Assembly (NCBI GenBank): GCA_024401855.1
Contig: JAKSKH010000003.1
Coordinates: forward strand, 29,879-93,878
From: Bacteroidales bacterium
GTDB lineage: Bacteria > Bacteroidota > Bacteroidia > Bacteroidales > UBA932
Direction: 5' to 3'
Length of the DNA stretch: 64,000 bases
Below are positions 53,308-62,745 of this stretch, in pieces. Both the position numbers and the translations under genes were made by a program. Below the pieces are notes generated by a model that was given only the letters and a program-made list of their open reading frames with translations, had not been told where the DNA came from and did not search any database. Every line of letters starts with the position of its first letter. The first letter of the stretch is position 1.

Positions 53308-53654
53308 CAATTTCAAATTTTCCTACAACTTTCCTACAAATTGAAAATCCTTTAACGAATCAGCCCAGGAGCAATCGCTGCTTCTGGGCCTTTTCGACTT
53401 TTAAAGCAAATCCGTATGGCGGACTCACTTCAAAAAGAACGTATAATCTTGCAAAGATACTTCAATATTCCGGTCGTATCAACAAGAGAGCAATCAATTT
53501 GTAAAGGACTGGTTCCTGACAGGATACTCAGTGGGTAAAAATCATATGTATGCACGGATGAATATAACTAAGTTGGCTATTTGGAATGTAAAAAATCCAG
53601 TTCCTGAAAAAATCGGTATCTTCGTGTCATAAACAATCGGCAGAGCCATCCGGC
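53308..53654. other. Gene-free stretch downstream of tRNA-Cys
   Basis: About 350 bases without a supported gene. It holds the hairpin at 53363-53394 and an in-frame 40-codon ORF at 53416-53538 that has no recognisable motif. The composition is AT-rich. It may be the eroded remains of something inserted at the tRNA, but nothing identifiable survives. Confidence 0.4.
53363..53394 (+). terminator. Second terminator-like hairpin in the post-tRNA gap
   Basis: GCCCAGGAGCA pairs with TGCTTCTGGGC (one G-T pair) around a 5-base loop, followed by CTTTT. No gene ends directly before it, so it may be a relic of a lost gene. Confidence 0.6.
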
Positions 53655-54749
53655 TCAAATTCTTTTCCCCGATTCCGTTTCGTGTTCGAACTCAGGCAAC
53701 CCGCTTTTCCGTTTTTTATTTACTTGCGAAACTAAAATATCATATACTTGCCATATCGGTTTCATTACCAGCACTCTTATCTTGTCAAACAGGCAGCTGA
53801 CAATGGGAATTGTGATTGCAAGTCCCGTGAATATAAGGAAACTACCCCCCCCCTCATAGGTGTCTGACAAAAATTTCACCTTAGGATAGAGATATTCCTC
53901 GGCAACAGGGGCTGATTGAATCATATATACTGCCAAAGCGCTTGCGGAAAGCCAATTGACTATGCGGTTTTTGAAACTAAATGTCATTGCAAACAGGAAG
54001 AATGCAATTGATCCTAATATGTTGAAGGGATGGTTGTATGTGAACAGGCCTTTTTTTGTCTGGATTAATCCTGATATTGCCCATAATGCGCCACAAAGCA
54101 CATAAGCGGAAATCAATATCCAACGCTTGTTTTTCAAGTTCTGAATATTTACAAAGCGCTTGATGAAACCGCCAATAACATACATATAGACCATCTGCAT
54201 TGCGCAGTAGCCTGCATTGATTCCAGATTTATTTCCAAAATACCCGAGCCAAACATTCGCGAATGTCAGAAGTATTATTGTGATTCTGAATTCTTTCCTG
54301 CTGCTTTCCTGTATGAATCTGTTCAGTAGAGGGGCCATACAGAAAAGGGCGATGTAACACGGGATAAACCAATATGACGAATTGGCGAACGGGAAAAATG
54401 TGTTTATAATCAGAGATATCCACATATGCTGCCCGGTAGCGATGATTCGTGCGAAGTAGTTCAACATCCCGTAGAATGCACAGAATGTATATAGATTAAA
54501 GAACTTCCGTACTGTCGGTTTGATGCCATAATATCCGCTAATCAGAATGAAGATATTGACGGCAGGGAAAAACAATCCATTCAGGAATAGTGCAATCTTT
54601 GCATTTGTTGTGGATATTGCCGCACCGCGTTCAAGTAGCTCCGGGCATGAACCATGCACCAGAATGTGATGGAACACGATGAAGAACATACATACCAGCC
54701 GAAGCAGTTCTGCGTTGGAGTCTCGCGCTATTTTAGTTCTATCTGCCAT
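53655..54749 (-). CDS. Acyltransferase 3 family membrane protein
   Basis: 364 aa with about ten hydrophobic helices. The N-terminal RDSNAELLRLVCMFFIVFHH contains the family's R-x10-H-type motif, and NIFILISGYYGIKP is also typical. These inner-membrane proteins O-acylate (often O-acetylate) cell-surface sugars. The AT-rich composition and the position after tRNA-Cys suggest acquisition. There are no polysaccharide synthesis genes next to it, so the acceptor is unknown. Confidence 0.9.
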   Translation of the reverse strand: MADRTKIARDSNAELLRLVCMFFIVFHHILVHGSCPELLERGAAISTTNAKIALFLNGLFFPAVNIFILISGYYGIKPTVRKFFNLYTFCAFYGMLNYFARIIATGQHMWISLIINTFFPFANSSYWFIPCYIALFCMAPLLNRFIQESSRKEFRITIILLTFANVWLGYFGNKSGINAGYCAMQMVYMYVIGGFIKRFVNIQNLKNKRWILISAYVLCGALWAISGLIQTKKGLFTYNHPFNILGSIAFFLFAMTFSFKNRIVNWLSASALAVYMIQSAPVAEEYLYPKVKFLSDTYEGGGSFLIFTGLAITIPIVSCLFDKIRVLVMKPIWQVYDILVSQVNKKRKSGLPEFEHETESGKRI

Positions 54750-55608: not shown

Positions 55609-55645
55609 CTTGAATGCCTCTGAGTGCCTTCAGAGCCATTACTGT

Positions 55646-56095
55646 GTGGAAGGCGTTTTGCAGGAAGCAGACGTCCCGCTCAAAGAGCGCGCAAGCCGCA
55701 TAAACGCCCGCTGTGCCGCACTTGGCAAGGAAAACGTTATCTTGGTCAGCATCCACGCCAACGCCGCCGGAAACGGCTCAAAATGGCTCAATGCAACTTG
55801 CTGGAGCGTCTATACGAGCAAAGGGCAGACCAAAGCAGATCTTCTCGCTGATGATTTGGCCAGAGCTGCCATGAAGTATCTCGGATCAAAGGCCGTGCGT
55901 GGAGATTTCGCTGACGGGGATATCGACTATGAGGAGGGCTTCTACATCCTCAAGCACACAATCTCACCTGCAGTACTGACGGAGAATCTGTTCTTCACCA
56001 ATGAAGATGACCTTGCATTTCTGGAGCCCAAGGAAGGTAAGCAGGCAATCGTCGACCTGCATGTGGAAGGAATAATCGACTACCTAAGCCGATAG
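55646..56095 (+). pseudogene. N-terminally truncated N-acetylmuramoyl-L-alanine amidase (amidase_3)
   Basis: About 149 aa matching the C-terminal two thirds of amidase_3 domains. LKERASRINARC, VILVSIHANAAGNGSKW with a zinc-ligand-type His, and SPAVLTENLFFTNEDD with the catalytic Glu are visible. The first ~50-60 residues, including the usual INPGHG-like zinc ligand segment, are missing. There is no ATG; only a GTG at 55646 or a TTG at 55610 could start it. It is probably a dead phage-type lysin gene. It ends one base before the convergent YdeI-like gene. Confidence 0.72.
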
Positions 56096-56096
56096 A

Positions 56097-56678
56097 TCAG
56101 TAGCCGAGCAACTTGCCATTATCATCCCAACCTGGCTGCATCTTGCCTTTTCGGGCATCATCAATAAGCGTTTGGAGCATGTGCTGAGCATACTCCGGGC
56201 GTTTCGTATTGTTGTAGTATTGGATGCGGTCAACCTTGATGCGCTGATATGCACCAGGGAACGAATTGAAGTTCTTCCATACAATCGGGTCGGCCTTCAG
56301 GGCGTCGATGACCCACTGCTCAAAGACGAAATTTGCAGGATCATAGTCAGGCAATACGGCAAGCCCTGCAGGAGACATTTCGCCCAGATCAATGAGACGA
56401 CGGCATCGCTCGATATTGTTCCAGCACCAGTTGCTTCTCTTGCGGCGTGGAGAAAATCGCTGGATGGGTTTGCCTTCGTCAATGCGTTTTTGTGTGCTGT
56501 CAATCCAGCCGAAACACAAAGCCACCTCCACGGCATCCACGTATCCTACGACGCCAGGTAATGTTTCCTTGGCCCTGTTGATGCGAAGCCAGAACTCCGA
56601 TACCTTGTCCTGATTCTCAAGGTACCAGGCGTAGAGTTCTTCGCGTGTGTGAATATCAATGAGATTGGTGACTTCCAT
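56097..56678 (-). CDS. YdeI/OmpD-associated family protein
   Basis: 193 aa, cytoplasmic. The N-terminal part (HTREELYAWYLENQDKVSEF, FWLRINRAK, EVALCFGWIDSTQKRID, QRFSPRRKRSNWCWNN) matches the YdeI family, members of which have been linked to stress or bacteriocin tolerance. The C-terminal half (FNSFPGAYQRIKVDRIQYY, NTKRPEYAQHMLQTLIDDAR) is also typical. It lies 6 bases downstream of the broken deoxyribosyltransferase-like gene and is probably co-transcribed with it. Confidence 0.85.
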   Translation of the reverse strand: MEVTNLIDIHTREELYAWYLENQDKVSEFWLRINRAKETLPGVVGYVDAVEVALCFGWIDSTQKRIDEGKPIQRFSPRRKRSNWCWNNIERCRRLIDLGEMSPAGLAVLPDYDPANFVFEQWVIDALKADPIVWKNFNSFPGAYQRIKVDRIQYYNNTKRPEYAQHMLQTLIDDARKGKMQPGWDDNGKLLGY

Positions 56679-56684
56679 CTAATG

Positions 56685-57113
56685 CTACTCGGCAAGGAGT
56701 TTCACGAGTTCATCAAGATTGCCAGTTACGGCAGAGAAGAGTTTGTACATCAGCTCTGCCTCCTGCATCTCAGGAATGTAGGCGATGGTCTTGCAACCAC
56801 GGCCAGCAAATCAGCCTGCCTCTGTGTGAGCGCTGCGGCCACATGGAAGCACAAGAACACAAGTGTCAGCCCATTCCATGGCCTCAAGATCGCTCTTGAA
56901 CTGCTGCTCTGACCAAGGATCCTTCAAGCCCTTGCAATACTGCTCAACGGTCCAGTTCTGAAAATCAGGATCTACATCAGACCAATGGAAGCCACCTTTG
57001 CCATAAGGAGGATTGCGGAAGTCATATACCTCGTGACCAGCCTCGCGGAGTTTGGTCACAACATCAGGATAGAAGGCGTTGCGCCAGCTGCTTGCTACAT
57101 AGATTTTTGCCAT
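56685..57113 (-). pseudogene. Nucleoside 2-deoxyribosyltransferase-like gene with an in-frame TGA
   Basis: The N-terminal 100 codons read a deoxyribosyltransferase-like protein: MAKIYVASSWRNAFYPDVVT, HEVYDFRNPPYGKGGFHW, EWADTCVLVLPCGRSAHTEAG. Codon 101 (56811-56813) is TGA. The same frame then continues FAGRGCKTIAYIPEM and LMYKLFSAVTGNLDELVKLL to a TAG at 56685, restoring a 142-codon family-length protein. Homologous proteins normally carry Trp (TGG) there. A point nonsense mutation is the simplest explanation, or a sequencing error. Other genes here use TGA as stop. Confidence 0.75.
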
Positions 57114-57360: not shown

Positions 57361-57942
57361 TTACGACGGCAACCCCTTGCCGTGCTCTTCTACATCAACA
57401 GGCTCACAAAGAATTTTCCCGAAATATATCCACCACGCAAGGCAGAAAAGATGCCTGTAATCCTGTGCCTTGAAGCAATCATTGCAAGCAATCACAGCGT
57501 ATGTGAACAATCCTATGCACAGCATCAGGTTATTGGTGTTGTCCTGGGGTATGCCGCCTTCTTTCATCGTCTCGTCGGCACGCATGGCAATAAGAGAAGC
57601 TGCAGCACCAATCTCAGGATAGATATCATTCCAACGGCCAGACTCGACTTCTCGTTTCTTCATCTGATTGGCAAAGTCAACAAGTGGTCCCAATCTCTTA
57701 GCGAATCCTCCACAGAATGTAATGAGTGCGTCCTCACACCTGTCGAAATACTCATTCATGGCACCAGCCAGGTCCTCTGAAACGGGATATGCAGGAATGT
57801 TCTCATTGCAGAACGAAACGAAACGCAGAGTCTCTCGGGGCAGCCGCAGATTCACTCCAACCCTATGGGCTATGTAGATGACGGCGAGAATCTGGAATTC
57901 AGGAATAATGCAGTGATTGAATTGCAGTAGAATCTCACTCAA
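57361..57942 (-). CDS. Hypothetical protein
   Basis: 193 aa, but the only start near the full frame is TTG at 57942; the first ATG (MNEYFDRC) lies about 60 codons in. The sequence is moderately hydrophobic and helical (NNLMLCIGLFTYAVIACNDC, LFCLAWWIYFGKILC) with several Cys. No domain is recognised. Island location and odd start make it a possible 5'-damaged gene, although the downstream frame looks protein-like. Confidence 0.5.
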   Translation of the reverse strand: MSEILLQFNHCIIPEFQILAVIYIAHRVGVNLRLPRETLRFVSFCNENIPAYPVSEDLAGAMNEYFDRCEDALITFCGGFAKRLGPLVDFANQMKKREVESGRWNDIYPEIGAAASLIAMRADETMKEGGIPQDNTNNLMLCIGLFTYAVIACNDCFKAQDYRHLFCLAWWIYFGKILCEPVDVEEHGKGLPS

Positions 57943-58000: not shown

Positions 58001-58220
58001 ATGGCATACGAGCATAAAGAAGGACAGGGCTCACTGTTCAAGAACGAGAAGGCTAACGATCGTCAGCCGGATTATAAGGGTACCATTGTCATCGGTGGCG
58101 TAACATACGAAGTTGCGGCATGGGAGAAGACATCTCAGAGAGGCACAAAATTCTTCAACTCCTAAATATCAACATGACGAATTCCCTGTTGCAGAAGAAT
58201 TCGAAGATTTACCTTTCTAA
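58001..58220 (+). pseudogene. Small DUF736-like ORF with a frameshift before an SSB-like tail
   Basis: ATG at 58001 starts a 54-codon ORF (EGQGSLFKNEKANDRQPDYK, GTIVIGGVTYEVAAWEK, RGTKFFNS) ending in TAA at 58163. In the +1 frame, coding resumes at once as KYQHDEFPVAEEFEDLPF and stops at 58220, 11 bases before the RecQ-like gene. The combined ~73 aa product resembles small mobile-element proteins and ends in an acidic DLPF tail like that of single-stranded DNA-binding proteins. Either a one-base indel or a +1 frameshift at TCC-TAA-A. Confidence 0.55.
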
Positions 58221-58231
58221 AATGATGTAGT

Positions 58232-60529
58232 ATGACAAACTATAATTATACGAGAGAGGAGGCGGAAAAAATCCTCAAAGAACGATTCAATATTGAGCAT
58301 TTCAAGGATTCTCAATGGGAAGGAATCAAACATATTCTTCATGGCGAGCGTGTACTTATGATACAGCCTACTGGCTTTGGAAAATCATTGTGCTTCCAAT
58401 TCCCTGCGACTGTATTTGATGGGCTAACACTTGTAATCTCCCCTTTGATTGCGCTGATGAAAGATCAGGTTAAGAATCTGAAGAAGAAAGGGATAGGTGC
58501 CGAGTTCCTTAACACATCAATTGAGGATGAGAGTGAAAAACAAAGAATTCTTCAGGATGCAATTGATAATAAGATAAAGATGTTATACATAGCCCCTGAA
58601 AGAATGGATAATGACGAGTGGCAGGAAGCGCTTACTAAGATGAAAATATCATTTGTTGTTATAGATGAAGCGCATTGTATTTCTTCATGGGGGCATGTTT
58701 TTAGGCCGTCATATCGTAGGCTTGTTAGGTTGGTTAATCTCTTACCTAAAAGTTGCCCTGTGTTAGCGGTTACTGCTACGGCAAACAGTAAAACTCAAAA
58801 AGATATCGAATCGCAGATTGGACGTAATGTCATTACGATACGTGGAGATCTTACGAGGAAAAATATTGCACTCCAGGTTTCGACGGTGACTGATGATAAT
58901 CAAGTGTTTCTGTCTTTAGCTCAATATCTTCAAACAGCACCTGGCAGCGGAATTGTATATGCAGGTAGTACTATGAGAACAGAAATTTTCTCAGACTGGT
59001 TGAACTTCGTCGGCATACCAGCAATTAACTTCTATGGCAGAATGGATTCTGAGGATAAGAACGCTGTGTTGGAAGATCTAATGCAGAACAAATGGAAGGC
59101 TATCGTTTCTACAAGCGCATTGGGAATGGGTATTGATAAACCTGATGTGGCTTTTGTCGTGCATACACAAATCCCCGAGTCTCCGATTCATTATTATCAG
59201 GAGGTCGGTAGGGCAGGCCGTGATGGAAATGCCTCTCAAGCACTTTTGATATATAATACAGATTTGACGCCAGATGGAATTCCAGAAGGCATGTCCATGT
59301 CATATTCATTTGTTCAAAATGCTCGCCCTGAATTGTACAAGTATGAAGCTGTAATTGAGTCTTTGAAGAATGAAAGAAGTACTCAGAAATCTCTGGAAAA
59401 CGCTTTGGATATAAACTCAAGTTCAATGAAGACCATTGTCGAGGATTTGGTTGACCAAGGCATAGTACGGTGTGTGCGGGAGAAAGAACTTGTGGAAACA
59501 AAACTTCTTTCACTTCCATCCCGTAATGATGACTTCAATAAAGCGAAATCTCTAACTTCGGAGCAGATGGCAACCATAAAGTCATGTTTGATTGGTGGTA
59601 GAATGTCGGTATTTAACCTGTGTAGAGAAGCAAAAGTTCCTCAAAAAGTTCTAATCGGCTTAGCAGAGGAAGGTTGCTTAACTATGGAAATAGAACAGAA
59701 AGTGCAGGTTAAACAGTTCCTGGAGTATATACCTGGCGCTCCGTCCCTTTCCACAGTAGACTTCACATCTCAAAAAAGAGATGCAATGGAGGACCTGAAT
59801 CAAATGGAAGCATATGTTACGACAAAGGAACCACGTATGGGCTTTCTATGTCACTATCTTGATAGCGATGAGAACAAATGTCATCAGAATTGTGATAATA
59901 CCACTCTTTCTAAGTTTGAGTATCATTCCGATTCGTTTTTGGAGGCGAAACTCAAAGAATTTCAGGAGAATACATTTCCTACTATTACAGTAGGCAATCC
60001 ACCCAAATGTTTGCTTCCAGGCATAGCTGCTGGGTATTATGGCATGTCTAACATAGGCGCAAGAATTCGCGCTTCGAAGTATTGCAATATTGAGCCGGGT
60101 GAGGACTATCCTGATTTTGATGATTATTTGGTTGAACAAACAGTGAAAGCGTTTAAATCAAAGTATGAGGTGGATGAAAATACTTTTATTCTGTTTGTTC
60201 CTCCAACAAAACATCGTAACTTAGTCAAAAATTTTGCAACTAAAGTAGCTGAGGCCCTTGGATGTCCCATCAATGATGCGATAATAAAGACCAGAGAAAC
60301 TGATGAACAAAAAAAATGGGTGACTACTGCCAAGAAAAAGGCTGCTATTAAAGATGCTTTTAATTATGTAGGCTCAAATGACCTTGGCTGTAAGCGAATT
60401 ATCTTAATTGATGATATTTGTGATTCAGGAGCTACAATAGCTGAAATTGCGAGAATGTTAGGAAAGAAAGGTGCTCAAGAAGTCATTCCTTTAGTAATCG
60501 CAAAAACAGTTGGAGGCGATAAATTATGA
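58232..60529 (+). CDS. RecQ-like helicase with C-terminal phosphoribosyltransferase domain (PsyrTA-type)
   Basis: 765 aa. Superfamily 2 RecQ motifs: QPTGFGKS (Walker A, residues 45-52), VVIDEAHCISSWGH (DEAH 145-148), STSALGMGIDKPDVAFVVH and QEVGRAGRDG. A Cys cluster (CHYLDSDENKCHQNC) lies near residue 545. The C-terminus is a PRTase fold with the PRPP-binding loop IILIDDICDSGAT (727-735). RecQ-PRTase next to a DprA-like gene is the make-up I associate with the PsyrTA toxin-antitoxin/anti-phage pair. AT-rich codon use unlike the core genes suggests transfer. It overlaps the next gene by four bases (ATGA). Confidence 0.85.
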   Translation: MTNYNYTREEAEKILKERFNIEHFKDSQWEGIKHILHGERVLMIQPTGFGKSLCFQFPATVFDGLTLVISPLIALMKDQVKNLKKKGIGAEFLNTSIEDESEKQRILQDAIDNKIKMLYIAPERMDNDEWQEALTKMKISFVVIDEAHCISSWGHVFRPSYRRLVRLVNLLPKSCPVLAVTATANSKTQKDIESQIGRNVITIRGDLTRKNIALQVSTVTDDNQVFLSLAQYLQTAPGSGIVYAGSTMRTEIFSDWLNFVGIPAINFYGRMDSEDKNAVLEDLMQNKWKAIVSTSALGMGIDKPDVAFVVHTQIPESPIHYYQEVGRAGRDGNASQALLIYNTDLTPDGIPEGMSMSYSFVQNARPELYKYEAVIESLKNERSTQKSLENALDINSSSMKTIVEDLVDQGIVRCVREKELVETKLLSLPSRNDDFNKAKSLTSEQMATIKSCLIGGRMSVFNLCREAKVPQKVLIGLAEEGCLTMEIEQKVQVKQFLEYIPGAPSLSTVDFTSQKRDAMEDLNQMEAYVTTKEPRMGFLCHYLDSDENKCHQNCDNTTLSKFEYHSDSFLEAKLKEFQENTFPTITVGNPPKCLLPGIAAGYYGMSNIGARIRASKYCNIEPGEDYPDFDDYLVEQTVKAFKSKYEVDENTFILFVPPTKHRNLVKNFATKVAEALGCPINDAIIKTRETDEQKKWVTTAKKKAAIKDAFNYVGSNDLGCKRIILIDDICDSGATIAEIARMLGKKGAQEVIPLVIAKTVGGDKL

Positions 60530-61473
60530 TACCATTAGAAGAACTTCCATATTGGATATGCCTGGCCCATATCCCCAAAATGAAAACCGTTCAGAAGAAC
60601 GGAATAGTAGTCTCGTGCTTTAAGGAGAAGATTCAGTTATCCACGTTTTTCAATGAGATAGATAATTGGAAAAATAAGTTCCAGATAGATGATTCTTCTT
60701 GTAGTGCAATAAAAGTGGCTGCTGAAAGTATGACAAACCTGGCGTTCTTTGTGGAAGACCTTCTAAATCAAGGCGTCTCAATAATTCCTATAATCGACAG
60801 TAACTATCCTGAAAGTTTGAAGCGCAATATGAAGTACAACGCGCCTGTTGTCCTGTATGTTAAGGGCGATGTGTCTTTATTAAATAAAGATTGCGTCTCT
60901 ATAGTGGGTAGCAGGAATGCAGATGGCGTTTCATTGGAATTCACAGACAATATAGCGAAGGCATGCGCTAACCAGGGATACGTTATCGCATCTGGCTTCG
61001 CTAAAGGTGTTGATAAGCAGGCACTAGAGTCTGCTTTATCTGTTGATGGAGAGAGTATTATTGTTCTACCACAAGGGATATCTACGGCCACTAGCAGTTT
61101 AAAAGCGTATTATAAACCTATAGTCGATGGTAGGGTTATTGCTCTGAGTACATTCCATCCTAAATCTCCATGGAGTGTGGAAAATGCCATGTCAAGAAAT
61201 TCTATTATTTATGGTTTAGCGCAAAGCATTTATGTGGCGCAATCAGATTCGAAAGGTGGAACATGGTCAGGGGCGATAAACGGTCTTCGTAAGGGACAAA
61301 GGATATATGTTAGAAAACCGTCTTCTGACGAGAAGGTTGCGAATAACTTGTTGATAGATAAAGGTTGTATCCCTGTTGATATGGATGGACATCCTATATG
61401 TTCAACATCAGTCGAGGAAAAGCCAGAAGCCGTTGAAAGTGCATCACTTTTTTCCGATGCAGATTTCCAATGA
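60526..61473 (+). CDS. DprA/SLOG-like nucleotide-binding protein (PsyrTA-type partner)
   Basis: 315 aa. The central Rossmann-like SLOG/DprA domain is clear: CVSIVGSRNADGVSLEF, GYVIASGFAKGVDKQALESA, SIIVLPQGIS and NSIIYGLAQSIYVAQSDSKG, then GGTWSGA. The N-terminal ~100 residues (SIIPIIDSNYPESLKRNM) also resemble DprA. It lacks the usual winged-helix tail of transformation DprA. Coupled by ATGA to the RecQ-PRTase helicase, so the two act as a pair, probably in phage defence. Not a competence gene by context. Confidence 0.85.
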   Translation: MIPLEELPYWICLAHIPKMKTVQKNGIVVSCFKEKIQLSTFFNEIDNWKNKFQIDDSSCSAIKVAAESMTNLAFFVEDLLNQGVSIIPIIDSNYPESLKRNMKYNAPVVLYVKGDVSLLNKDCVSIVGSRNADGVSLEFTDNIAKACANQGYVIASGFAKGVDKQALESALSVDGESIIVLPQGISTATSSLKAYYKPIVDGRVIALSTFHPKSPWSVENAMSRNSIIYGLAQSIYVAQSDSKGGTWSGAINGLRKGQRIYVRKPSSDEKVANNLLIDKGCIPVDMDGHPICSTSVEEKPEAVESASLFSDADFQ

Positions 61474-61518: not shown

Positions 61519-61553
61519 AAACTCCCGATCCGCGTTCTGCGGGTCGGGAGTTT
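61519..61553. terminator. Intrinsic hairpin after the RecQ/DprA pair
   Basis: A 15-base stem AAACTCCCGATCCGC / GCGGGTCGGGAGTTT with one G-T pair and a 5-base loop. It lies between the convergent DprA-like and BRO-N genes and could stop both. Confidence 0.75.
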
Positions 61554-61573
61554 CACACGCCTGAACGGATGAT
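61552..61573 (+). repeat. Interspersed palindromic repeat, copy 1
   Basis: 22 bases TTCACACG-CCTGAA-CGGATGAT. It shares the exact 15-mer CGCCTGAACGGATGA with copy 2 at 62582. Degenerate left arm. Confidence 0.55.
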
Positions 61574-61596
61574 TCTTTACAGCCAACACGAGGTTT

Positions 61597-62460
61597 TTAC
61601 TCCTCTCCGTCCTCCTTCCCCTCTGAAAAGTCGAGTTGGGGTTGCTGACTTTCGAGGAAGCGCTTCATACTGAGGTCGGTTACGACTTTCTTGCCGGTTT
61701 GCTGCTCGAAGGCTTCACGGGCTACTCTGGCAACGGAACCACCTCGGGAAGCGGCTTGTGCGTGCTCGTCCATGGTGATGGGGTGTTCTTCTTTGGTGAT
61801 GTTGGTGGTGGTCAGTTCGGCCAACATATTCATTACCAGTTCTTCGTTGGTCATGTTGTCTCGAAGGTTCTCCTTGTGAAGGCCCTTGAGTCGCTTATAT
61901 TCTCTGGCGGTAAGGCCTGCCCAGGTTTGGTAGATGATGTCGGTGAGGGTAGCATAACCGGTGCCCTCTTCGACTCCGTGCTCTTTCCACTGGTCTGTGA
62001 GGTCTTTGCGGATCTCGATGGACTTGAGGCGCTGGTTGATCCAGTTGTCGGAATAGCCGAGGCGCTTGAAGTCAGCGAGCGACTGTTGGATGCCGAGTTC
62101 CGGGTCCTGCATCTGATGGATGCGGTCCGCTCCTACCTGTGCGAGCCAGCGCTTGAAGGGTTCGGCCTTCTTGGATGGGATGGACTGGACAATGCGGAGA
62201 AGCCCTTGGATATCAATGCATTTGGGATTATGCCGTTTGCCATCGGAGGAGATGAATTTGTAGGGGGGACAATTTGTCCCCCTCACGAACGCATCAAGTT
62301 CGGGGTCGCGTTTGCGAAGCTTCTTGAAGTATCCTGCCGGATCCTTGCTGTCGGTGAGAGCTTCTACGGCATCGATAATGCAGAAGTAGTATTTCTCCTC
62401 ATTATCGTTCCAATATGTGCGTATCTGCCTGCCGGCAAACAACTGTATCTCCTGTGGCAT
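61597..62460 (-). CDS. BRO-N domain (phage antirepressor-like) protein
   Basis: 287 aa from the ATG at 62460. The N-terminal BRO/antirepressor domain reads IQLFAGRQIRTYWNDNEEKY, YFCIIDAVEALTDSKDPAGY and FISSDGKRHNPKCIDIQGLL. The C-terminal region (GYATLTDIIYQTWAGLTARE, HAQAASRGGSVARVAREAFE) is typical of chromosomal BRO-N proteins in Bacteroidota. These bind DNA and often sit in prophages or defence islands. Flanked on both sides by copies of a palindromic 22-base repeat. Function here unknown. Confidence 0.85.
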   Translation of the reverse strand: MPQEIQLFAGRQIRTYWNDNEEKYYFCIIDAVEALTDSKDPAGYFKKLRKRDPELDAFVRGTNCPPYKFISSDGKRHNPKCIDIQGLLRIVQSIPSKKAEPFKRWLAQVGADRIHQMQDPELGIQQSLADFKRLGYSDNWINQRLKSIEIRKDLTDQWKEHGVEEGTGYATLTDIIYQTWAGLTAREYKRLKGLHKENLRDNMTNEELVMNMLAELTTTNITKEEHPITMDEHAQAASRGGSVARVAREAFEQQTGKKVVTDLSMKRFLESQQPQLDFSEGKEDGEE

Positions 62461-62483
62461 AATCAAATCACACTTATTCTGGA

Positions 62484-62491
62484 CAAATTTA
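62484..62491 (-). promoter_or_regulatory. -7 box of the BRO-N gene
   Basis: Minus-strand TAAATTTG matches TAnnTTTG, 24 bases upstream of the ATG at 62460. No clear -33 was found. Confidence 0.4.
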
Positions 62492-62581
62492 GCAATTATT
62501 CATTATTCTGACATACATGTTAGTACTGAGTGTAGGAACTAAATATACATGGCTATTGGTTTGGTTTCCGATCATGTTCGG

Positions 62582-62603
62582 TTCATCCGCCTGAACGGAT
62601 GAA
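62582..62603 (+). repeat. Interspersed palindromic repeat, copy 2
   Basis: TTCATCCG-CCTGAA-CGGATGAA with perfect 8-base arms. This is the best-preserved copy. Confidence 0.6.
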
Positions 62604-62640
62604 TCCGATATGGAAAAGCCGCCTAACCCTGTCTGTTATA

Positions 62641-62662
62641 TTCACCCGTCTGCGTGGATGAT
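62641..62662 (+). repeat. Interspersed palindromic repeat, copy 3
   Basis: TTCACCCG-TCTGCG-TGGATGAT, a diverged copy of the same 22-base pattern, 59 bases after copy 2. Confidence 0.45.
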
Positions 62663-62745
62663 GCTCTCGGGGCTGTTCTGGCCATTTCTGTCAGAATGAA
62701 TTCTGTAATCAAGTATTTTTTCGTAATTTTGCTCAAACGAACAGC

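What the first reader, a model, noticed from the sequence alone, without database searches (positions are those of the whole stretch)
58232..61473. RecQ-helicase-PRTase plus DprA-like pair: PsyrTA-type defence module in a tRNA-linked island
Seen: a 765-aa SF2 RecQ helicase with an added Cys cluster and a C-terminal PRPP-binding loop (DDICDSGAT), coupled by ATGA to a 315-aa SLOG/DprA-like protein. The AT-rich codons and setting beside a BRO-N gene and broken genes point to transfer. Established, from memory: this gene pairing corresponds to PsyrTA, a toxin-antitoxin with anti-phage activity. Inference: this is a divergent Bacteroidota version, possibly with an additional upstream component.
Basis: partly seen in the sequence, partly recalled or inferred. 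Interest (0 to 1): 0.72.

Follow-up and report, generated by a model that had tools for sequence, protein, structure and literature searches.

The report
Acquired PsyrTA toxin-antitoxin pair, modified
A bacterium carries a two-gene module, apparently acquired from elsewhere, that belongs to a known family of DNA-linked toxin-antitoxin (possibly anti-virus) systems, with an extra protein segment not seen in the relatives compared and a family tail that resembles a hook for the DNA replication machinery.

Summary
[quoted passage not shown] PsyrT and PsyrA are the best defence profiles for the two; housekeeping RecQ and DprA equivalog models score below cut-off, and the genome has separate copies. 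The pair belongs to the known PsyrTA (= RqlHI) family, where in E. coli the PRTase is toxic and the DprA-like partner binds and restrains it. It was not found in 120 same-genus genomes; its GC3 (0.35-0.36, window genes 0.61 +/- 0.05) indicates acquisition as a unit.

Variant features: an extra ~75-residue PsyrT segment absent from 87 of 87 full-length relatives, and a PsyrA without the usual C-terminal HTH.

By-product: PsyrA proteins often end in QxxLF, like a sliding-clamp-binding motif (50 of 85; 4 of 463 other ORFs; 0 of 17 housekeeping DprAs scored). The window copy keeps only the LF half.

Not supported: a third upstream component, an "added" Cys cluster, an integrase-type tRNA island, or origin of the extra segment by duplication of the winged helix. 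Antiphage activity is untested here; one E. coli PsyrTA showed none.

The parts
58232..60529 (+). psyrT-like toxin gene: RecQ helicase + C-terminal PRTase, 765 aa
   Evidence: two other RecQ-type helicases elsewhere in the genome
58250..59260 (+). RecQ SF2 helicase core (aa 7-343); K51, D145, E146, R327, R330 identical in 88 of 88 aligned sequences
59327..59473 (+). winged-helix-like region between RecA2 and zinc subdomain (aa 366-414), shared by the family
   Evidence: sub-cut-off HTH hits; alignments; family profile of this region matches aa 364-416 at 38.1 bits
59474..59722 (+). extra segment (aa 415-497), about 75 residues longer than in relatives, predicted mostly helical, identity unknown
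   Evidence: 0 of 87 distinct full-length relatives have it; absent in 5 named proteobacterial/cyanobacterial PsyrT; model pLDDT 45-76 per block of ten; not a detectable copy of the family winged helix
59768..59899 (+). degenerate RecQ zinc-binding subdomain (aa 513-556)
60233..60499 (+). PRTase domain (aa 668-756); PRPP loop RIILIDDICDSGATI aa 722-736; D731 aligns with E. coli RqlH D663
   Evidence: role of D663 in toxicity from PMC4670107
60526..61473 (+). psyrA-like antitoxin gene: DprA/SLOG protein, 315 aa, no C-terminal HTH
60526..60529 (+). ATGA stop/start overlap coupling the two genes
   Evidence: a 4-nt overlap occurs in 44 of the 94 loci (of 100) that have a downstream PsyrA
61438..61452 (+). 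SASLF in the low-confidence tail of PsyrA: degenerate form of the family QxxLF (clamp-binding-like) motif
58004..58165 (+). upstream 53-aa SSB-like remnant, not part of the module; an acidic ...EEFEDLPF piece lies in another frame at 58173-58220
   Evidence: phrog_18154 E=1.3e-10; no homologue among ORFs of 100 PsyrTA loci
61597..62466 (-). neighbouring Bro-N gene (PADLOC candidate PDC-S13), apparently independent of the module

Best explanation
The pair is a horizontally acquired PsyrTA/RqlHI-type toxin-antitoxin module. PsyrT's PRTase domain is the toxic effector; its RecQ helicase part places it on DNA and, going by E. coli, also helps to restrain the PRTase. PsyrA, made from the translationally coupled downstream gene, binds PsyrT (in E. 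coli this needs the PRTase part) and holds it in check. The inferred trigger is abnormal replication or ssDNA during phage infection, which disturbs the complex, frees the PRTase and causes DNA stress and growth arrest. Shown here: homology, domains, catalytic residues, gene coupling, foreign composition, the extra PsyrT segment, the missing PsyrA HTH. Shown by others in E. coli: PRTase-dependent toxicity and physical interaction. Inferred: trigger, defence role, and any role of the extra segment (one guess is that it takes over a DNA- or partner-binding task of the lost PsyrA HTH).
For: PsyrT and PsyrA are the top defence profiles, 1.1e-211 and 5.1e-77. DprA equivalog score 115.1 bits, cut-off 191.15, in the range of other PsyrAs (about 100-123 bits); 18 of 20 genomes searched that carry PsyrT have a separate DprA over the cut-off, as does the own genome (191.9 bits), which also has two other RecQs. 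87 of 93 distinct PsyrT relatives have PsyrA directly downstream. K51, D145, D727, D731 identical in 88 of 88. Models: PsyrA pLDDT 93.5, best PDB match ShosA 8zva; PsyrT pLDDT 81.9, best match RecQ core. PMC4670107 (abstract, passages, sections 11, 12, 15): D663A or loss of the PRTase domain removes most toxicity, RqlI co-precipitates with RqlH unless the PRTase part is missing, and RqlI without its HTH still inhibits RqlH, which fits the HTH-less window PsyrA. Not found in 120 same-genus genomes; GC3 0.35/0.36.
Against: No experiment on this pair. PMC12409345 (passages, sections 6 and 8): deleting PsyrTA in its native E. coli strain did not seem to affect any of the 10 phages tested, and cloning it in K-12 gave no detectable protection against 15 phages, with a growth defect. 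PMC4670107: PRTase alone is not toxic, helicase-dead RqlH still lowers viable counts and RqlI does not rescue that, and many strains have RqlH without RqlI, so a simple TA picture is incomplete. The genome is a 67-contig, 85%-complete assembly.
Confidence: 0.72

Rival explanations
1. The pair is a DNA repair or recombination operon (RecQ plus DprA), not a toxin-antitoxin pair: the helicase remodels DNA and the DprA-like protein protects ssDNA.
For: Helicase core closest to RecQ in sequence and fold and over the cut-off of the RecQ-family model TIGR00614; DprA fold.
Against: Below both housekeeping equivalog cut-offs; separate RecQs and DprA in the genome; sparse distribution; PRTase domain with intact PRPP loop.
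Confidence: 0.12
2. The pair is a selfish addiction module kept by the DNA that carried it, with no defence role.
For: Foreign composition; TA behaviour of the E. coli homologues; no protection by PsyrTA in one E. coli study.
Against: Named relatives sit inside a BREX operon and a type I restriction operon; a DprA+PRTase pair from a P2-like phage protects against T7 and lambda (PMC9122126 passages).
Confidence: 0.32
3. This copy is decaying: the extra segment and the shortened PsyrA tail are signs of a non-functional pair.
For: Extra segment modelled with low confidence and unique among those compared; PsyrA tail motif degenerate; a broken gene directly upstream.
Against: Both frames open, the catalytic residues checked are kept, the segment has the gene's GC3 (0.361 vs 0.347), short-tailed PsyrAs occur in 9 other members.
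Confidence: 0.12

Closest known systems
PsyrTA (Pseudomonas syringae) / RqlHI (extraintestinal E. coli)
   Same: RecQ helicase + PRTase protein upstream of, and overlapping with, a DprA/MoCo-like partner; PRPP-loop aspartate and helicase motifs conserved
   Different: Bacteroidota-type clade; extra ~75-aa segment between winged helix and zinc subdomain; degenerate zinc site; PsyrA lacks the C-terminal HTH
ShosTA (PRTase + DprA; absence of a helicase is recalled)
   Same: DprA-like partner (best PDB fold match 8zva ShosA) and a PRTase (ShosT profile 1.1e-08 on aa 641-760)
   Different: Helicase present here; PsyrA profile scores far better than ShosA (257.6 vs 114.4 bits)
Housekeeping RecQ and DprA
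   Same: Helicase core; Rossmann-type DprA fold
   Different: Below both equivalog cut-offs, linked as a pair, PRTase domain, accessory distribution; other copies in the genome

Membership tests
PsyrTA / RqlHI | RecQ-type helicase with intact ATPase motifs | tested here: met
   (K51, D145, E146, R327, R330 in 88 of 88)
PsyrTA / RqlHI | C-terminal PRTase domain with PRPP loop | tested here: met
   Pribosyltran 37 bits, cut-off 26.3; D727 and D731 in 88 of 88
PsyrTA / RqlHI | Adjacent downstream DprA-like gene matching PsyrA | tested here: met
   PsyrA 5.1e-77; 4-nt overlap
PsyrTA / RqlHI | C-terminal HTH in PsyrA (usual; dispensable for inhibition in E. coli) | tested here: not met
   27-aa tail after the core, low confidence in the model; 9 of 89 other PsyrAs compared also have short tails, so I do not treat it as defining
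PsyrTA / RqlHI | Toxicity of PsyrT alone, neutralised by PsyrA | not testable with these tools
   needs expression experiments
PsyrTA as an anti-phage system | Protection against phage | not testable with these tools
   a negative report for an E. coli PsyrTA; a positive one for a DprA+PRTase pair
ShosTA | Stand-alone PRTase toxin without helicase (recalled) | tested here: not met
   helicase core present
Housekeeping DprA (TIGR00732) | Score over the curated cut-off 191.15 | tested here: not met
   115.1 bits; own-genome DprA 191.9 bits
Housekeeping RecQ (TIGR01389) | Score over the curated cut-off 640.2 | tested here: not met
   362.8 bits; the broader RecQ family model TIGR00614 is passed

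The most novel reading that the evidence does not exclude
PsyrA is a replisome-tethered sensor. Many PsyrA proteins of Bacteroidota and neighbouring phyla, and one cyanobacterial member, end in a sliding-clamp-binding-like peptide (QxxLF, or QLxLxL/QLSLL variants), so the antitoxin would ride on the DnaN clamp and release PsyrT when replication is hijacked or stalled. The window copy would be a branch that has weakened this tether (SASLF), lost the PsyrA HTH, and gained an extra module in PsyrT that may take over part of their task.
Probability: 0.32. Interest if true: 0.62.

Novelty: new variant of a known kind. Interest (0 to 1): 0.38.

Why it matters
How PsyrTA-type systems sense their trigger is not settled in the papers I saw. 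If PsyrA carries a clamp-binding tail, the question becomes directly testable: does PsyrA bind DnaN, and does losing the tail abolish sensing but not toxin inhibition? The window copy, with its extra PsyrT segment and HTH-less PsyrA, is a natural variant that separates antitoxin function from accessory parts.

Tried and rejected
Third upstream component: the 58004-58165 ORF is an SSB-like remnant; it, the Bro-N protein and the 57361-57942 protein have no homologue (blastp E 1e-3) among ORFs of 100 PsyrTA loci; rejected.

Mobile carrier: no PsyrT relative was confirmed in viral contigs. In phages, 38 records match, none over 80% of the query; the 15 rows listed cover the helicase and winged-helix part only, at most 53%. 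No integrase appeared among the nine window proteins given to Pfam. The tRNA-Cys neighbourhood differs between relatives, but integration at the tRNA was not shown, and a clean empty site was not found: the left-flank and right-flank matches that I looked at lie in different genomes or on different contigs.

Identity of the extra segment: best Pfam hit PuR_N, E=0.019, below cut-off; no PDB sequence match up to E=5; one plasmid hit at E=0.7. Idea that it is a second copy of the family winged helix: a profile of that region from 87 relatives gives at most 1.7 bits per domain on it, while shuffles of it reach 6.6; rejected as a detectable duplication. A wHTH-like fold remains a guess. Because of this, and of the fuller reading of the two papers, I lowered the best explanation from 0.75 to 0.72, the novel case from 0.35 to 0.32 and the interest from 0.40 to 0.38, and raised the addiction rival from 0.30 to 0.32.

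Clamp-motif controls: Y-family polymerases had QxxLF in the last 60 aa in 2 of 14 scored (17 loci; in 3 my pattern found no polymerase). Other clamp-like forms were seen there (QISMF, QLNMF, QLSLGF), but this positive control is weak. 17 of 19 housekeeping DprA loci given to one search were scored, 0 with the motif. Related PsyrAs are not independent, which shuffles and background do not correct; on the FastTree tree the motif changes about 20 times and the HTH about 10 (supports not inspected). In the E. coli and Acinetobacter PsyrAs read, the motif is not at the C-terminus (the E. coli chromosomal copy has an internal QPELF). I could not model PsyrA-DnaN or PsyrA-PsyrT complexes.

Promoter-like sites were fewer than in shuffles (5 against a mean of 10.4); not used.

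Papers: one search returned unrelated papers and was redone. I found no paper reporting a clamp motif in PsyrA/RqlI; searches were (listings) and a find in PMC4670107 ('clamp' and 'DnaN' 0 occurrences). The library holds open-licence PMC papers only, no preprints.
Full report
Observation. Both genes are present as described: a 765-aa ORF at 58232-60529 and a 315-aa ORF at 60526-61473, coupled by ATGA. The first has DEAD and Helicase_C domains, a RecQ zinc-binding subdomain and a phosphoribosyltransferase domain; the second a DNA_processg_A (DprA) domain. Profile scores are far beyond chance: PsyrT 702.8 bits, PsyrA 257.6 bits.

What it is. Among PADLOC models PsyrT and PsyrA are the best for the two proteins. 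Against curated equivalogs both are below cut-off: RecQ 362.8 of 640.2 bits, DprA 115.1 of 191.15; the broader RecQ-family model TIGR00614 is passed, 324.2 of 219.8. In 20 order-level genomes that carry PsyrT, 18 have a separate DprA over the cut-off, while their PsyrA-type loci score about 100-123 bits, the range of the window protein. The window's own genome has its own DprA at 191.9 bits, just over the cut-off, and two other RecQ-type helicases.

Distribution. In 398 same-family genomes (own included), five of other genera had strong matches to the C-terminal part, and two further hits were weak, one of them in the genus. In 393 genomes of the order 21 including the own had a match. In 395 of the phylum 89 matched at E 1e-5, but only eight besides the own at E below 1e-50 in one piece; most of the others listed are weak and cover only part of the query, chiefly the PRTase part. 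A scan of named genomes gave 250 confirmed relatives, of which the best 80 were kept, mostly Bacteroidota and Ignavibacteria with some other phyla. So the gene is accessory. The pair differs sharply from its surroundings: GC3 0.347 and 0.364 against 0.608 +/- 0.047 for 31 ORFs before 53 kb. The adjacent Bro-N gene has GC3 0.669 and 89-91% identical copies in two of 250 same-genus genomes searched, so it probably travels separately.

Gene linkage. Of 93 distinct PsyrT relatives (100 loci), 87 have a PsyrA on the same strand within 400 bp downstream; of the six loci without one, one ends 112 bp after PsyrT.

Anatomy of PsyrT. The helicase and PRTase residues checked are identical in all or most of 88 aligned sequences. 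The window's D731 aligns with D663 of E. coli RqlH. PMC4670107 (abstract, passages, sections 11, 12, 15) reports that D663A or loss of the PRTase domain removes most toxicity, that the PRTase alone is not toxic, that helicase-dead RqlH still lowers viable counts, that RqlI co-precipitates with RqlH only when the PRTase part is present, and that RqlI's HTH is dispensable for inhibition. The 'added Cys cluster' is the RecQ zinc subdomain: Cys540 is kept in 86 of 88 and Cys554 in 88 of 88, other positions vary.

Extra segment. Between a winged-helix-like region and the zinc subdomain the window protein has 85 residues where the 87 relatives have 7-12. Five named proteobacterial and cyanobacterial PsyrTs lack it too, and four same-family relatives have open frames of 674-688 aa, too short to be expected to hold it (one of them with an internal stop; not aligned). 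The segment has the gene's own GC3 (0.361) and is modelled mostly as helices at pLDDT 45-76. It has no confident family match and is not a detectable duplicate of the family's winged helix: at most 1.7 bits, while shuffles reach 6.6. Its role is open.

Anatomy of PsyrA. The model is confident (pLDDT 93.5) and closest to ShosA and DprA structures. Its last 25 or so residues have low confidence and there is no HTH. Ten of 90 compared proteins, the window included, have such short tails, with about ten changes on the tree.

Tail motif. Many PsyrA tails end in QxxLF. PMC12309361 (passages) gives QL[S/D]LF or QxxLF as the sliding-clamp-binding consensus and QLSLPL as a tight binder. QxxLF lies in the last 16 residues of 50 of 85 distinct PsyrAs, against 4 of 463 other ORFs of 300 aa or more in the same loci, about 1% of shuffled tails, and 0 of 1844 inner 16-mers of the same proteins. 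It is in 0 of 17 housekeeping DprAs scored, of 19 loci. Of nine HTH-less relatives, six have QxxLF, two have QLSLSF or QLKLPL, and one ends QKIFSF. A cyanobacterial PsyrA ends in QLSLL. Against: the sequences are related, the motif is lost repeatedly, the E. coli and Acinetobacter PsyrAs read here do not have it at the end, and my polymerase control was weak, 2 of 14. The window copy has only SASLF. I rate clamp binding as a prediction for the family, not a finding about this locus.

Mechanism. I commit to a PRTase-toxin, DprA-antitoxin module of the RqlHI/PsyrTA kind, perhaps abortive-infection-like. For a defence role: one relative lies inside a BREX operon, another inside a type I restriction operon, and a DprA+PRTase pair protects against T7 and lambda (PMC9122126 passages). 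Against: PMC12409345 (passages, sections 6 and 8) saw no contribution of PsyrTA in its native E. coli strain against 10 phages and no protection against 15 phages in K-12, with a growth defect. PMC10732053 (passages) names ShosTA among systems activated by, or responding to, phage SSB or replication intermediates, which makes a replication-derived signal plausible.

Surroundings. Upstream is an SSB-like remnant, downstream the Bro-N gene; neither recurs in 100 PsyrTA loci. In one same-genus genome tRNA-Cys is followed by the amidase and the 57361-57942 gene without the YdeI/nucleoside-deoxyribosyltransferase genes, and then by a different ORF; another has an ATPase-like ORF (judged by eye) and the Bro-N gene beside this tRNA. 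The region is variable, but no integration mechanism was shown.

Verdict. A real, probably recently acquired member of a known toxin-antitoxin and candidate defence family, with a variant architecture. Interest is moderate; the clamp-tail prediction is the part most worth testing.

Noticed in passing
window 58004-58220: SSB-like 53-aa ORF (phage-type SSB profile) that ends early, with an acidic EEFEDLPF piece in another frame directly before psyrT; looks like a broken SSB gene.
   Followed up: partly
window 61552-62664: The Bro-N gene (PADLOC candidate PDC-S13) is flanked by 24-nt direct repeats (61552, 62582, 62641); 89-91% identical copies of about the same extent occur in two same-genus genomes, suggesting a small mobile cassette.
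   Followed up: partly
L232 (same-genus genome): A ~126-bp repeat, also at window 53566-53691, occurs as two inverted copies downstream of the tRNA-Cys near the Bro-N gene.
   Followed up: no
window 56057-57044 and L237: The stretch with the YdeI-like and truncated nucleoside deoxyribosyltransferase genes has a second, 76%-identical copy elsewhere in the same genome (G000 contig 9).
   Followed up: no
window 55610-56095: The amidase ORF is 161 aa here and 196 aa in the same-genus copy of L231; its N-terminal part seems to be missing.
   Followed up: no
L169, L172: PsyrTA pairs sit inside a BREX operon (Acinetobacter plasmid) and a type I restriction operon (E. coli plasmid).
   Followed up: partly
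L043-L142 (PsyrT): The RecQ zinc site is degenerate across the PsyrT relatives aligned: only two of the cysteines are conserved.
   Followed up: yes
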